A stretch of DNA of 64,000 bases from Phycisphaerae bacterium (lineage in GTDB: Bacteria; Planctomycetota; Phycisphaerae; Phycisphaerales; UBA1924), in NCBI GenBank assembly GCA_022180725.1, contig BQMO01000001.1, positions 124,001 to 188,000 on the forward strand. Direction: 5' to 3'. Position numbers and translations under genes: made by a program. Below, piece after piece: positions 7,761-13,092 of this stretch; the first letter of the stretch is position 1, and each line of letters begins with the position of its first letter. Below the pieces are notes generated by a model, which was not told the DNA's origin, ran no database searches, and worked only from the letters and a program-made list of their open reading frames with translations.

Positions 7761-9728
7761 TCAGTTCGCCGCGTCGAGCAGTTCGACGCTCTCGAACTTC
7801 TTGCCCTCGAGCATTTCCAGGCTCGCCCCGCCCCCGGTGGAGACGTGGCTCATCTGATCGGCCAGCCCGAAGGCGTCCACCGCCGCCGCGCTGTCGCCCC
7901 CGCCCACAATGCTCACCGCCCCCGTCTTGGTCGCCTCGGCGATCGCCTTGGCCACCTGACGCGTTCCCTGCGAGAAGGGCGACCACTCGAACACGCCCAT
8001 CGGCCCGTTCCACACGATCGTCTTCGCCTTCCGCAGCACCAGCGCAAACTTCGTCTGCGTCTTGGGGCCGATGTCCAGACCCATATACCCGTCCTTGATC
8101 GTGTCCTCGAACACTTCGATGTCCCCCGTGCTCTCGGCGAACTGCGACGAGCACACGTGATCCACCGGGTACAGAATCTCAACTTTCAACTTCTTGTCCA
8201 GGTCGATGATGCGCTTGGCATCCGCCAGCCGATCCGGCTCCACCTTGCTGTTCCCCACGTTCTTCCCCATCGCCGCGAGGAACGTGTACGCCATCGCCCC
8301 GCCCACGAGGATCGTGTCGGCCTTGGGCAGCAGGTTCTCGATCGCCCCGAGCTTGTCGCTCACCTTCGCCCCGCCCAGCACCACCACGAACGGCTTGCCC
8401 GGGTTCGCCAGCGTCGCCGACAGGAAGCGGATCTCCCGCTCCACCAGGAACCCGCAGACGCGCGGCTTGCCCGCCATCGCCTTGGGCACCGCCACCATGC
8501 TCGCGTCGGGTCGGTGGCATGTCCCGAAGGCGTCGTTCACGTACGCGTCCGCGTACGCCGCCAGTTTCGCCGCGAAGGCCGGGTCGCCCTTCTTCTCGCC
8601 CTTGTGGAACCGCAGGTTCTCCAGCAGCACCACCTCGCCGTCCTTCATGGCGGCCACCGCCGCCGCCGCCGCCGCGTCGGTGCAGTCCTGGCTCGGAAAG
8701 CCCACGGGCTTGCCGAGCAGTTCGCCCAGCCGCGTCGCCGCGACCTTCAGCGAGTACTCGGCCTCGTACCCCTTGCCCTCGGGGCGCCCCATGTGCGAGA
8801 CGAGGATGGCACGCCCGCCACGGTCCATGACGGAGCGGATCGTGGGTACGGCCTCGCGGATGCGCCGATCGTCGGTGATGCGGCCGTCCTCGAGCGGCAC
8901 GTTGAAGTCCACGCGGATCAGCACGCGCTTCCCGGTGGGGTTCAGCGACGCCACCGTCTTTTTGTGGATCGGCGCCCCCGCCATCGGCGCCGCCGCCGTC
9001 ACGGGCAAGGGCTTCACGGCCGGGCCGGTCGTCGGCGACTCGGCGTGCGGAACCGCCATCGAGTGAATCGCGTCAAACGTGGCCGAGGGCGTGACCACCG
9101 GGGCCGTGCCCAGGTCCACCCCGCCCTCGATCATCGACCCGATCCGCGACCGCAACGCCGCGGCCCCGTCGTGGTCCAGCGCGTCTTTCACCTGACGCAA
9201 CTGCGTCGCGATCGACCCGTCGATCAGCCGGTCCCCGATCCGCAGCTTCACCCCGCCGATCATCGCCGCGTCCGTGTACGGATGCACGATCACGTCCTTG
9301 CCCAGCGCCTGCCGGAGCCGCCCCTTCAGCGACGCGAGCGCCGACGCGTCCATCGGTTCGGCCGTGAACACGTCCACCTCGACGCGCCCCAACTTGTCCT
9401 GCACGATCGAGTCGAACGCCGCCACAACCCCGGTGATCGCCGAGATCCGGCCCTTGTCGTTGAGCACCCGCAGGAAACTCAGCGTGAGGTCCGACACGCG
9501 GCCCTTGAAGATGCGCGTCAGCGAGCCGTCGCGCTTCTCCGCGTTGATCGCCCGCGAGGTCAGCAGTTCCGCGAACTTCGCGTCGCCGCGCGCCAGGTCG
9601 AGAATCTCCTCGAGCTCACCCAGCGTCGCCTCGACCGCGGCCCGCCCCCCCTTGCCCTCGGCGAGTTCGTACAGGCTCTTGGCGTACATCCGGGCGACGG
9701 CGTCGGGCTGAGTGTCTACGAGCGGCAT
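7761..9728 (-). CDS. atpH/pgk: Fused ATP synthase delta subunit - phosphoglycerate kinase
   Basis: One uninterrupted 655-residue frame. Residues 1 to about 185 are a complete F1 delta subunit (OSCP): ARMYAKSLYELAE at the start, FLRVLNDKGRI near 85, and the C-terminal MIGGVKLRIGDRLIDGS. Residues about 186-253 form an Ala/Pro/Thr-rich linker. Residues 254-655 are a complete phosphoglycerate kinase: RVDFNVPL, SHMGRPEGK, LLENLRFHKGEKK, DAFGTCHR, LGGAKVSDKL, WNGPMGVFE and GGGDSAAAV. No stop or frameshift separates them. An internal ATG at 8984 (MAGAPIHKK) sits where a stand-alone pgk would begin, but has no purine-rich site in front. The gene is last in the F0 operon, 50 bases after atpF. PGK makes ATP from 1,3-bisphosphoglycerate; delta ties F1 to the b stalk. 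Confidence 0.9.
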   Translation of the reverse strand: MPLVDTQPDAVARMYAKSLYELAEGKGGRAAVEATLGELEEILDLARGDAKFAELLTSRAINAEKRDGSLTRIFKGRVSDLTLSFLRVLNDKGRISAITGVVAAFDSIVQDKLGRVEVDVFTAEPMDASALASLKGRLRQALGKDVIVHPYTDAAMIGGVKLRIGDRLIDGSIATQLRQVKDALDHDGAAALRSRIGSMIEGGVDLGTAPVVTPSATFDAIHSMAVPHAESPTTGPAVKPLPVTAAAPMAGAPIHKKTVASLNPTGKRVLIRVDFNVPLEDGRITDDRRIREAVPTIRSVMDRGGRAILVSHMGRPEGKGYEAEYSLKVAATRLGELLGKPVGFPSQDCTDAAAAAAVAAMKDGEVVLLENLRFHKGEKKGDPAFAAKLAAYADAYVNDAFGTCHRPDASMVAVPKAMAGKPRVCGFLVEREIRFLSATLANPGKPFVVVLGGAKVSDKLGAIENLLPKADTILVGGAMAYTFLAAMGKNVGNSKVEPDRLADAKRIIDLDKKLKVEILYPVDHVCSSQFAESTGDIEVFEDTIKDGYMGLDIGPKTQTKFALVLRKAKTIVWNGPMGVFEWSPFSQGTRQVAKAIAEATKTGAVSIVGGGDSAAAVDAFGLADQMSHVSTGGGASLEMLEGKKFESVELLDAAN

Positions 9729-9778: not shown

Positions 9779-10366
9779 TCAGTTCTTCATCGCGGCCAAC
9801 TGCTTGACCGACTCGTCCACCAGGGCCTGCGTGTCGCCCCCGGAGACGTTGCGCTTCAGCACCTTCGAGGCGATCATCGTCGCGAGGTTCGACGCCTCGC
9901 CGTAGATTTCCGCCACCGCGGCGCGCTTCGCCGCCTCGATGTCCTTGCGGGCGCGGTCCCGCAACTGGCTCAGTTCCGCGTCGGCCTGAGCCTTGAGCTG
10001 CGCCGCCAGGGCCGTCTGCTGTTGACGGGCCTGCTCGATCATCTTCTGCGCGTCCGCCCGCGCCTTGGCCAGCGACTGCTGGTATTCCTCGAGCGCGTCC
10101 TTGGCCTGCTTGCGGGCCATCTCCGCCGCCTCGATCTCCTCGCGGATCTTCGCCTCGCGGTCCTGCAGCCCCTTCACGATCATCGGCCAGACCTTGATCG
10201 ACAGAATCGCCAAGACCGCCGCGAATACCACCAGGCTCACCACCATCGGCGCGAGGCCCTGCTGGATCGTCGGCACCACCCCCGCCTTCTCGTGCGTCGT
10301 GTCGCCGGCGAACGCGGCGGCGGGAGCCAGAGAAGCCAGAAGAATCATGACGCGGCTGTATTTCAT
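9779..10366 (-). CDS. atpF: ATP synthase F0 subunit b
   Basis: A 195-residue peripheral stalk subunit. After an N-terminal segment that reads like a cleavable signal peptide (ASLAPAAAFAGD near residues 12-22) comes a short polar stretch, one membrane helix at about residues 41-62 (VVSLVVFAAVLAILSIKVWP), then a long charged alpha-helical region rich in Ala, Glu, Lys and Gln that forms the dimeric stalk, as in all b subunits. A signal peptide in front of the anchoring helix is not the usual design. It sits between atpE and the delta-PGK fusion that should bind its C-terminus. Confidence 0.9.
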   Translation of the reverse strand: MKYSRVMILLASLAPAAAFAGDTTHEKAGVVPTIQQGLAPMVVSLVVFAAVLAILSIKVWPMIVKGLQDREAKIREEIEAAEMARKQAKDALEEYQQSLAKARADAQKMIEQARQQQTALAAQLKAQADAELSQLRDRARKDIEAAKRAAVAEIYGEASNLATMIASKVLKRNVSGGDTQALVDESVKQLAAMKN

Positions 10367-10838: not shown

Positions 10839-11786
10839 CTAGTGGGCGTGCGCGTGCTCGTGGCCGTGTGCCTCCCCATGCTCGTGGTCATGGTGATGGC
10901 TGAGTTGCGAGATGAACACCGTCGTCAGGAACATGAACACGAACGCCTGGAGGAACGCGACGAACAACTCCAGGAAGTAGATCGCCACCGCCGACACGAT
11001 CGAGATCAGCGAGATCGCCCCGCCCATCACCGTCCCCGCGATCCCATCCCCGATCATCCCCAGCCCGCTCACCGCGAACATGAACAGCACCGCGACCAGG
11101 ATGTGCCCGGCCGTCATGTTCGCGAACAGACGCAGCGCCAGCGCCACCGGCTTGATGATCGTCCCCACGATCTCGATGGGCACCAGCAGCAGCGAGATCG
11201 GAAACTTCGTCCCCGCCGTCAGGTGCCCCAGGTAGCCCCCCAGGCCCAGTTCGCGGATGCCGGCGATGTTGATGACCAGCGCCGCGATCATCGCCAGCGC
11301 CGCCGTTACGAAGATGTTCTGCGTCGCCGTCGCCCCCACCACCCCGCTCAGCACGTGCCCGCCGGCGAAGTGGTCGATCAGGTGCGTCAGGTCCGTCAGC
11401 GGCGTAAGCCCCAGCAGGTTGTTCACCAGGATGAAGAAGAACACCGTCCACAGGAACGGCATGAACCGGTCCGTCCGGTGGCCCAGCAGAGGACGCACCG
11501 TGTTGTCCCGCAGGTAGACACAGATCACCTCGATCATGTGCGCCAGGGCGCCCTTGGTCAGGTAACGGTCATACCCCTGCGATTCCGGCCCGGTCTTGAT
11601 CCGTGACGCCGCGTACCACAGCAGCCCCACCACGATCACGCCCGAGAGAAACAGGTTCCCCACGTGCGCCGACCACAGCCAGACGCCGTGCATGCCGAAA
11701 AGGTCCGTCACCCACTTGGGCGAGTTCACGACGTGGTCGACGGGGTTGCCCTCCGCCAGCGTCAGCGTTGCCAAACCAATGTTCAT
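10839..11786 (-). CDS. atpB: ATP synthase F0 subunit a
   Basis: A 315-residue polytopic subunit forming the proton half-channels. The essential stator Arg is R219 in ALALRLFANMTAGH, and PFLWTVFFFILVNNLLGL (from residue 110) is the typical second conserved helix. The start at 11786 overlaps the stop of the upstream gene (ATGA). The protein ends with an unusual tail: after FISQLS, residues 297-315 contain ten His among 19, mixed with Asp, Glu, Gly and Ala. This looks like a metal-binding or pH-sensitive extension and is not part of the usual subunit. Confidence 0.93.
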   Translation of the reverse strand: MNIGLATLTLAEGNPVDHVVNSPKWVTDLFGMHGVWLWSAHVGNLFLSGVIVVGLLWYAASRIKTGPESQGYDRYLTKGALAHMIEVICVYLRDNTVRPLLGHRTDRFMPFLWTVFFFILVNNLLGLTPLTDLTHLIDHFAGGHVLSGVVGATATQNIFVTAALAMIAALVINIAGIRELGLGGYLGHLTAGTKFPISLLLVPIEIVGTIIKPVALALRLFANMTAGHILVAVLFMFAVSGLGMIGDGIAGTVMGGAISLISIVSAVAIYFLELFVAFLQAFVFMFLTTVFISQLSHHHDHEHGEAHGHEHAHAH

Positions 11787-12253
11787 GTTCGCTCGCTTCC
11801 CGAAAGAGCCGCCCGCAGGGCCAGGGTCCCCCACGCGGCCTCCACCGCCAAGCACAGAATCGCCGCCGTCAACATCGCGGCGAAGAACGCCGCCGTGTCC
11901 GGCTTCATCAGCAGGAAAAGCACCGTGCCCCCCGCCAGCGAGAACAGCAGCCGCGCCGTCCCCGACAGCACCACCGCCGGCCCGAGTTTGCCCACTGTTC
12001 GCACCCCGCCCGGCAGCAGTATCAGCACACTGACGAGGCACCCCAGCGCGACCGGCAGAACACCCATCGTCGTCGAGATCGACGGCCCCAAGGCCCCTTC
12101 CGGCGCCCGCAGCAGCCCCGCGGCAAAGAACCCCCCCGCCGAACCCACCAAACACGCGCACGCGAACGCACCGATCAGCATCGGCAGCCGGGCAATCACC
12201 CGTGGCGTGGGCGTCGATTCGGGCTGTAAAGTTGACTCGGCCATGGTCAGCAT
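11783..12253 (-). CDS. Four-helix membrane protein of the F0 operon (AtpI/AtpR-like position)
   Basis: 156 residues if translation starts at the ATG at 12253; an ATG three codons later (12244, MAEST) is equally possible and neither has a clear ribosome site. Four hydrophobic helices follow a polar N-terminus: about 25-48, 62-80, 92-112 and 118-140. It lies between the AtpI-like gene and atpB and overlaps the atpB start by four bases. In many bacteria this slot holds AtpI or AtpR, which help assemble the c ring or supply Mg2+. Sequence similarity is weak, so the assignment rests on position. Confidence 0.6.
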   Translation of the reverse strand: MLTMAESTLQPESTPTPRVIARLPMLIGAFACACLVGSAGGFFAAGLLRAPEGALGPSISTTMGVLPVALGCLVSVLILLPGGVRTVGKLGPAVVLSGTARLLFSLAGGTVLFLLMKPDTAAFFAAMLTAAILCLAVEAAWGTLALRAALSGSERT

Positions 12254-12329
12254 CAGGGGGCACAAGGGTAGCGGGCGACCGCCACGCTTTCCACGAAATG
12301 AACTGTTTGTTCGCCGGCTGATCGGATCG

Positions 12330-12608
12330 TCAAATGGTCGGCGGGGGGGGCTTCGACGCCTGACGGCGGGCACGACCCGCGGCAAACTCCCGCTCCGCCG
12401 CCTTCGCCTCACGAATGAACCGCACCATCCCCGTCACCAGCCCAAGCCCAAGCCCCACCAATAACGCCACGGGTGACGACTTCGCGAAGTAGTCGATCAC
12501 CCACCCGATCAGCCCTCCCGCCATCACCGACGCGGCGAACGAGAACGCAATCGCCCACGCCCGGCTCATCGACGCGTACGCCCCGGGCTGATTGGGTTTG
12601 CGGTCCAT
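12330..12608 (-). CDS. AtpI/AtpQ-like ATP synthase accessory protein
   Basis: A 92-residue two-helix membrane protein of the ATPase_gene1 type. Hallmarks are the first helix followed by GWVIDYFAKSSP, then a glycine-rich second helix (LLVGLGLGLVTGMVRFIREAKA). Such proteins open ATP synthase operons and are thought to act in assembly or Mg2+ supply. The start at 12608 (MDRKPNQ) is chosen over the ATG at 12620; neither has a strong ribosome site. It is the first gene of the leftward operon, 85 bases before the next gene, and starts 43 bases from the palindrome at 12651-12666. Confidence 0.75.
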   Translation of the reverse strand: MDRKPNQPGAYASMSRAWAIAFSFAASVMAGGLIGWVIDYFAKSSPVALLVGLGLGLVTGMVRFIREAKAAEREFAAGRARRQASKPPPPTI

Positions 12609-12650
12609 GCCGTGCACCATACGCACCGCGCGAACCTGTCGACCAAGGGC

Positions 12651-12666
12651 GACATACCAGTATGTC
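12651..12666. promoter_or_regulatory. Perfect 16-base palindrome in a divergent promoter region
   Basis: GACATAC-CA-GTATGTC is a perfect inverted repeat with a two-base centre. It lies between the divergent starts of the F0 operon (12608) and a lipoprotein gene (12694). Its place and symmetry suit a dimeric repressor or activator site. The regulator is not known. Confidence 0.4.
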
Positions 12667-12693
12667 CACCCCACACCCTCACGCAAAGGAGTA

Positions 12694-13092
12694 ATGAACA
12701 TGGCTCGATGGGTTCACATCGCGGCACCGACGCTCATGGCGTTGTCCATCGTGGGAGGCCTTGGCGGCTGCACCCCCAATCCGGCCAACAGCCGCACGGG
12801 CCTCGACACCGCACGCGTTCAAGAGCATCGGGACCGCATCGCAACCCTCCGGTTGCAACGCGACACGATCATCCGCCAGAGCGGCCTGATGGCCCTCGAC
12901 GAGGCGAATGATCCCGTCCTGCATCGCCTCCGGGCACTGGGGGCGGGGGACGCGCCCGCAACCCGGGACGCCATTCAAGAGCGCGACCAACTCGAAAAGA
13001 GGGCCGTCGATTTGGTCATCGTCCGCGCGCGAGTGGCCGACCTCAACCGCGAGATCGAGCACGTGCAGGACTCGCTGAGCGACCAGAACTGA
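12694..13092 (+). CDS. Lipoprotein with coiled-coil-like body, unknown function
   Basis: A 132-residue protein. The start at 12694 has AAAGGA four bases upstream. Residues 1-26 form a lipoprotein signal (hydrophobic core then LGGC with Cys26 as the lipidation site). The rest is highly charged with many Arg, Glu, Asp and Leu and no further hydrophobic stretch, and the heptad-like spacing suggests a helical bundle or coiled coil. No family is recognised. It is transcribed away from the F0 operon and lies 46 bases before serS, with which it may share a transcript. Confidence 0.7.
   Translation: MNMARWVHIAAPTLMALSIVGGLGGCTPNPANSRTGLDTARVQEHRDRIATLRLQRDTIIRQSGLMALDEANDPVLHRLRALGAGDAPATRDAIQERDQLEKRAVDLVIVRARVADLNREIEHVQDSLSDQN

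What the first reader, a model, noticed from the sequence alone, without database searches (positions are those of the whole stretch)
7761..9728. ATP synthase delta subunit fused in frame to phosphoglycerate kinase
One continuous 655-codon frame encodes a complete delta/OSCP domain, a 65-70 residue Ala/Pro/Thr-rich linker, and a complete PGK with all catalytic motifs. The gene sits exactly where atpH belongs, after atpF. If made as one chain, up to one PGK would be tethered to the top of each ATP synthase, linking glycolytic or gluconeogenic ATP turnover to the F1 motor. I know of no described enzyme of this kind, but I cannot search.
Basis: partly seen in the sequence, partly recalled or inferred. 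Interest (0 to 1): 0.93.

Follow-up and report, generated by a model that had tools for sequence, protein, structure and literature searches.

The report
ATP synthase delta–phosphoglycerate kinase fusion
In some uncultured Planctomycetota bacteria one gene encodes, in a single unbroken frame, both an ATP synthase subunit (delta) and the genome's only detected copy of the sugar-burning enzyme phosphoglycerate kinase, so the cell's two classic ways of making ATP would likely be physically tied together.

Summary
Confirmed. Window 9728..7761 (minus strand) is one 655-codon frame: complete OSCP/delta domain, ~70-residue linker rich in Ala and Pro, complete phosphoglycerate kinase (PGK). It follows ATPase_gene1-atpB-atpE-atpF and holds the only PGK and only delta found in a 94.9%-complete assembly; the same holds for G229, a second fused genome. 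Fifteen fused protein clusters (this one plus 14) were found, so it is no assembly error. In 101 of 149 family genomes whose PGK locus was checked, atpH and pgk are separate neighbours; 2 are fused. One clade of all 15 fusions is rejected (AU p 6e-115), so fusion most simply arose at least twice. Unfused pgk genes start about 18 codons before the RVDF motif; in all 15 fusions the residue there is Thr or Ile, which no start codon encodes, and 7 have no Met within 45 residues before RVDF. Separate PGK from another internal start is weakened, not excluded. Chain integrity, assembly into F1Fo and nucleotide coupling are inferred. Closest precedent: Mycoplasma mobile's F1-like gliding motor, which binds PGK non-covalently. 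No covalent delta-PGK was found in the papers searched. New variant of a known kind, highly testable.

The parts
7761..9728 (-). delta-PGK fused gene, 655 codons, ATG start, stop included
9177..9698 (-). OSCP/delta domain (residues 11-184)
   Evidence: Pfam PF00213 E 7e-40; only OSCP in the assembly
8970..9176 (-). linker, residues 185-253; residues 202-250 predicted disordered
   Evidence: AlphaFold2 pLDDT < 50 for 202-250; GC3 0.96
8982..8984 (-). in-frame ATG (codon 249), candidate internal start; no Shine-Dalgarno-like 4-mer upstream
7800..8948 (-). phosphoglycerate kinase domain (residues 261-643), only PGK in the assembly
   Evidence: Foldseek best match 1vpe, TM 0.90 by target length
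9779..10366 (-). atpF (ATP synthase b), directly upstream
   Evidence: Pfam PF00430
10449..10742 (-). atpE (ATP synthase c)
   Evidence: Pfam PF00137
10839..12263 (-). frame holding atpB (ATP synthase a); the domain is in its later part, so the true start is probably internal
   Evidence: Pfam PF00119 at residues 205-452 of the listed frame
12330..12701 (-). ATPase_gene1 protein at the head of the operon
   Evidence: Pfam PF09527

Best explanation
The gene encodes in one unbroken frame a complete ATP synthase delta subunit joined to the genome's only detected phosphoglycerate kinase (PGK), and the chain is likely made intact and predicted to hang one PGK on a flexible tether from the top of each ATP synthase, where it would share a local ADP/ATP pool with F1. 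Shown: the frame, both complete domains, one copy of each in the two fused genomes searched, recurrence in 15 protein clusters, conserved atpH-pgk adjacency in unfused relatives, and loss of the ancestral pgk start position in all 15 fusions. Predicted: two folded domains with about 50 disordered residues between them. Inferred: at least two fusion events; delta keeps its peripheral-stalk role (it is the only delta found and its gene follows atpF), so PGK is placed beside alpha3beta3, one per complex; a 49-residue disordered stretch would keep it within roughly 4 nm rms (my estimate, 0.4 nm persistence length). Least certain: that this proximity matters for ATP turnover rather than merely being tolerated.
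For: Uninterrupted frame and full domains. Only PGK and only OSCP found in G000 and in G229, so both functions very likely rest on this chain. Fourteen other fused clusters. Of 147 unfused family genomes examined, 145 could be scored and all 145 have a start codon 14-24 codons before the RVDF motif (ATG 123, GTG/TTG only 22); in the GTG/TTG rows printed it is 18 codons before the motif, 19 in one; the 2 unscored rows visibly read MPKK there. In the fusions the residue 18 before RVDF is Thr in 13 and Ile in 2 of 15, which ATG, GTG or TTG cannot encode. Seven of 15 have no Met within 45 residues before RVDFNVP. In 5 of 5 same-genus unfused genomes with the locus, atpH ends after 202-207 codons in TAG or TGA and pgk starts MPKK or MSKK further on; the window reads through both sites. 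PGK signature stretches align with 1vpe. Model: mean pLDDT 84.8, residues 202-250 under 50. Precedent for PGK held on an F1-like motor: Mycoplasma mobile.
Against: No protein-level data. GTG/TTG starts in the linker, or ATG starts in 8 of 15, could still give some free PGK. The Ala/Pro-rich linker could be cleaved. The linker is less conserved than the domains in all six pairs compared (43-83% identity against 81-90% in delta and 85-92% in PGK). Only 2 of 149 family genomes checked by frame are fused, so the tether is dispensable for the family. The linker is not simply a lengthened spacer: the nearest unfused relative, G264, has a longer atpH-pgk distance (408 nt against 261). Relative placement of the two domains is not determined (pTM 0.61). 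From general knowledge, ATP diffuses fast over bacterial distances, which limits the gain from tethering.
Confidence: 0.6

Rival explanations
1. Tolerated chimera: stop loss between two co-transcribed neighbours joined them; the chain is made and both domains work, but the tether has no selected function.
For: atpH-pgk adjacency is the commonest state in the family (101 of 149 genomes, median gap 92 nt) and the gap is a multiple of three in 36 of 101, about chance, so fusion needs few changes. The linker is less conserved than the domains. Only 2 of 149 genomes checked by frame are fused.
Against: One clade of all fusions is rejected, so most simply two or more origins. The 13 clusters P0004-P0016 comprise P0007 and twelve that are 56-82% identical to it, so the fusion has lasted through much divergence. 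Linker lengths are similar in all 15 (68-81 residues by the count), whereas unfused gaps range from 12 to 446 nt.
Confidence: 0.25
2. Two products: the frame is open but internal initiation in the linker, or proteolysis of it, yields delta and PGK as separate proteins.
For: In-frame ATG at codon 249 of the window and codon 234 of G229, besides several GTG/TTG codons; Met 23-40 residues before the PGK core in 8 of 15 fusions; GTG/TTG serve as pgk starts in 22 of 145 scored unfused relatives. Thermotoga makes both free PGK and PGK-TIM (PMC7729029, passages seen).
Against: The ancestral start position is Thr or Ile in 15 of 15, and no Met lies within 45 residues in 7 of 15. Neither ATG has a Shine-Dalgarno-like 4-mer, against 83 of 125 unfused pgk ATG starts (shuffled expectation 0.205); but the window's own atpH and atpE starts have none either.
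Confidence: 0.13
3. Sequencing or assembly artefact joining two genes.
For: The window's assembly is a draft (30 contigs) and many relatives are metagenome-assembled.
Against: Fourteen other fused clusters from several sources and the window protein on 9 contigs, one of the 14 being the fusion of genome G229. In the window the relatives' stop and start sites are replaced by in-frame coding sequence, not by a lost base.
Confidence: 0.01

Closest known systems
Mycoplasma mobile twin motor / G1-ATPase with PGK (PMC11864180, PMC8406192; passages seen)
   Same: A glycolytic PGK, expected by the authors to be the cell's working one, is physically built into an F1-type rotary ATPase; its weak density is explained by flexibility.
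   Different: Non-covalent, through an N-terminal extension of the beta-like subunit; a gliding motor whose gene cluster lacks a peripheral-stalk homologue, several PGK per dimer. Here PGK is covalent, on delta, encoded behind the Fo genes of an ordinary ATP synthase.
Thermotoga PGK-TIM fusion (PMC7729029; passages seen)
   Same: PGK covalently fused to another protein, about 70 kDa.
   Different: The partner is a glycolytic enzyme after PGK, and free PGK is also made; here the partner is an ATP synthase subunit before PGK.
b-delta (AtpFH) fusions of mycobacterial ATP synthase (recalled; NCBIfam lists 'F0F1 ATP synthase subunit B/delta')
   Same: Delta made as part of a longer chain that still serves the peripheral stalk.
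   Different: Fusion is between two stalk subunits, at the N-terminus of delta; no metabolic enzyme.
GAPDH-PGK module associated with membrane ATPases, e.g. the synaptic-vesicle proton ATPase (PMC5473427; passages seen)
   Same: PGK placed next to an ion-pumping ATPase for local ATP supply.
   Different: Non-covalent association in eukaryotes feeding ATP-consuming pumps.

Membership tests
ATP synthase delta/OSCP | Full-length OSCP domain above curated cut-offs | tested here: met
   Pfam 137 bits against cut-off 22.3, profile 1-172 of 172; TIGR01145 96 bits against 57.5; the other NCBIfam delta models listed score below their own cut-offs
ATP synthase delta/OSCP | Encoded among ATP synthase genes, single copy | tested here: met
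   Follows atpB-atpE-atpF; only OSCP match in the genome
ATP synthase delta/OSCP | Sits in the peripheral stalk of an assembled F1Fo | not testable with these tools
   No protein-level data
Phosphoglycerate kinase | Full-length PGK domain and fold | tested here: met
   503 bits, profile 3-379 of 379; Foldseek to 1vpe E 2.8e-45
Phosphoglycerate kinase | Catalytic and substrate-binding signature residues kept | tested here: met
   DFNVP, SHxGRP, GGAKVSDK, WNGPMGVFE, GGGDSAAA, STGGGASLE aligned to 1vpe; mostly invariant among the 21 sequences of A1. Roles of the motifs are recalled
Phosphoglycerate kinase | PGK activity | not testable with these tools
   Needs assay
Mycoplasma mobile G1-ATPase PGK | PGK bound through an extended beta-subunit N-terminus | not tested
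   The beta-like frame (L244) was seen, not compared for an extension
Thermotoga PGK-TIM fusion | TIM domain C-terminal to PGK | tested here: not met
   No TIM family in the Pfam scan; the PGK/TIM NCBIfam model matches only at positions 2-391 of 645, 517 bits against cut-off 883

The most novel reading that the evidence does not exclude
ATP synthases with a built-in phosphoglycerate kinase: a covalent bridge between substrate-level and chemiosmotic ATP synthesis that evolved at least twice in one Phycisphaerales family, in species where it is the only PGK, so that the whole PGK step of central carbon metabolism is stationed on the ATP synthase and exchanges ADP/ATP with F1 locally.
Probability: 0.4. 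Interest if true: 0.93.

Novelty: new variant of a known kind. Interest (0 to 1): 0.82.

Why it matters
Whether glycolytic enzymes work physically next to rotary ATPases rests largely on non-covalent associations (general knowledge; examples in PMC5473427, passages seen). A 2021 paper on the Mycoplasma mobile motor suggested that PGK was recruited to it because PGK was already working in close proximity to F1Fo-ATPase (PMC8406192, passage seen). A natural covalent delta-PGK carrying the only detected PGK, most simply evolved at least twice, gives that idea a direct test: purify the synthase and see whether PGK comes with it, and whether splitting the chain changes nucleotide exchange or growth. 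It would also be a natural design for attaching an enzyme to the stator of F1Fo.

Tried and rejected
Artefact: rejected on other assemblies. Second PGK or delta elsewhere in the genome: not found (69, 70 for G229). Three separate origins (starred branches force 3 changes): not kept, because holding P0004-P0016 together gave a likelihood better by 23 (p-AU 0.892), so at least two is claimed; but P0015-P0016 are unstably placed, beside unfused G056/G071/G206 in the PGK tree and beside unfused G212/G213/G255 and others in the joint tree. The groups tested were named after seeing trees; the joint tree used 90 of 117 rows with both proteins, thinned by hand, and two rows with short PGK were dropped from the PGK tree. 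A lengthened tether as a sign of selection: not kept, since the nearest unfused relative G264 has a longer spacer. Shine-Dalgarno absence as proof against internal initiation: not kept. Fusions elsewhere: a phylum sample of 392 genomes with PF00213 listed no other frame near 650 aa, but the list was cut. RNA fold around codon 249: not unusual (z 0.24). An archaeal fusion survey, PMC11237513: no delta-PGK in the two passages seen. Literature: seven searches aimed at such a fusion or at a PGK-ATP synthase link and three for precedents brought up no delta-PGK fusion; three of the seven had no hits, the others were judged from listings apart from the papers named here; open-licence full texts only.

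Full report
Observation. The minus-strand frame 9728..7761 is 655 codons with no stop. hmmscan gives OSCP/delta at residues 11-184 and PGK at 261-643, both over essentially the full profiles. The gene follows ATPase_gene1, atpB, atpE and atpF. The window's own assembly has one PGK match and one OSCP match, both in this frame. The F1 genes lie elsewhere: gamma on contig 6, alpha-like and beta-like frames on contigs 9 and 3 (these two subunit names are my reading of the sequences).

Recurrence. A search of about 5.8 billion proteins lists 15 fused clusters including this one among its best 120; searching from another fused protein adds none to its best 120. A search with the delta part of P0006 alone, among proteins of about 360-1140 residues, lists 15 proteins in all: 14 delta-PGK fusions and one delta-YggE fusion (the window's own protein is not in that list). 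Of 163 genomes of the same family, only G000 and G229 gave a full-length match without a stop. It has one PGK and one OSCP match, also behind atpB-atpE-atpF.

Origin. The PGK locus was checked by reading frame in 149 family genomes: 2 are fused, 101 have atpH and pgk adjacent on one strand within 500 nt (median gap 92, range 12-446), 42 show no delta in the fetched upstream stretch, 2 are further apart, and 2 had too little sequence. The other 14 of 163 were not in this count. The gap is a multiple of three in 36 of 101, close to chance. On a delta+PGK tree of 90 rows the window protein and P0003 sit inside the window's genus among unfused species. Holding all 15 fusions as one clade is rejected (log-likelihood 149 worse, p-AU 6e-115); holding P0002-P0014 together is rejected (p 1.5e-8); holding P0004-P0016 together is not, though P0015-P0016 are unstably placed. 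So most simply at least two fusion events; one event with many later splits is less parsimonious. In the five same-genus unfused genomes with the locus (a sixth, G261, 76% complete, had no match) atpH ends after 202-207 codons in TAG or TGA and pgk starts MPKK or MSKK. The window reads through both sites. Its distance from codon 184 to the RVDF motif is 261 nt, against 151, 153, 153 and 201 nt in four relatives and 408 nt in G264, the nearest one, so the linker is not simply a lengthened spacer.

One chain or two. Of 147 unfused family genomes examined, 145 could be scored, and all 145 have a start codon 14-24 codons before RVDF: ATG in 123, GTG or TTG only in 22. In the GTG/TTG rows printed it stands 18 codons before the motif (19 in one), and the 2 unscored rows read MPKK at their start. 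In the fusions the residue 18 before RVDF is Thr in 13 and Ile in 2 of 15, so that start is gone. Seven of 15 have no Met within 45 residues before RVDFNVP, six none from residue 186 on; the other eight have one 23-40 residues before it. GTG or TTG codons in the linker can be seen in the window and in G229 and cannot be judged elsewhere without DNA. The ATG at codon 249 of the window and codon 234 of G229 lack Shine-Dalgarno-like 4-mers, while 83 of 125 unfused pgk ATG starts have one against 0.205 expected by shuffling. That is weak evidence, since the window's own atpH and atpE starts also lack one. Linker GC3 is coding-like (0.96 in the window, 0.90 in G229), and the linker is less conserved than the domains (43-83% against 81-92% over six pairs).

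Structure. AlphaFold2 on 33 sequences gives mean pLDDT 84.8 and pTM 0.61, with residues 202-250 under 50: two folded domains, relative placement not determined. The 50 Foldseek rows shown are all PGK, best 1vpe; the delta half rests on sequence, with OSCP/delta chains of solved ATP synthases among the matches.

Function. Because delta and PGK are each single-copy here, the chain very likely serves both roles. Delta's place on top of F1 (established knowledge of F-type ATP synthases) would put PGK beside the catalytic hexamer, one per complex. Whether this changes nucleotide exchange is untested. The nearest precedent is the Mycoplasma mobile gliding motor, where PGK is bound to the F1-like ATPase by an N-terminal extension of beta (PMC11864180, passages); an earlier paper on it proposed that PGK was recruited because it worked close to F1Fo-ATPase (PMC8406192, passages). 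PGK-TIM fusions (PMC7729029) and GAPDH-PGK modules beside membrane ATPases (PMC5473427) are further relatives in kind (passages). Seven literature searches aimed at this brought up no delta-PGK fusion, in open-licence papers only and mostly judged from listings.

Noticed in passing
G000 contigs 3, 6, 9 (L244, L241, L243): The F1 genes of this genome appear scattered: gamma, alpha-like and beta-like frames lie on separate contigs, away from the Fo+delta operon in the window.
   Followed up: partly
P0161 (439 aa): A different delta fusion: an OSCP domain with a YggE/SIMPL (PF04402) domain in one metagenomic protein.
   Followed up: no
G220 contigs 44 and 284 (L137, L142): One family genome (4% contamination) shows two PGK loci, each next to an atpH; may be a second organism.
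   Followed up: no
window 11786-12412, minus strand: A 209-residue frame between the ATPase_gene1 protein and atpB with no Pfam match; G229 has a 208-residue frame without a Pfam match just upstream of atpB too. An AtpI-like protein would be expected there (recalled).
   Followed up: no
L037, L042: Records titled Leptolyngbya sp. PLA1 and Cyanobacteria bacterium CYA encode atpH-pgk loci resembling those of Phycisphaerales; the organism names look wrong.
   Followed up: no
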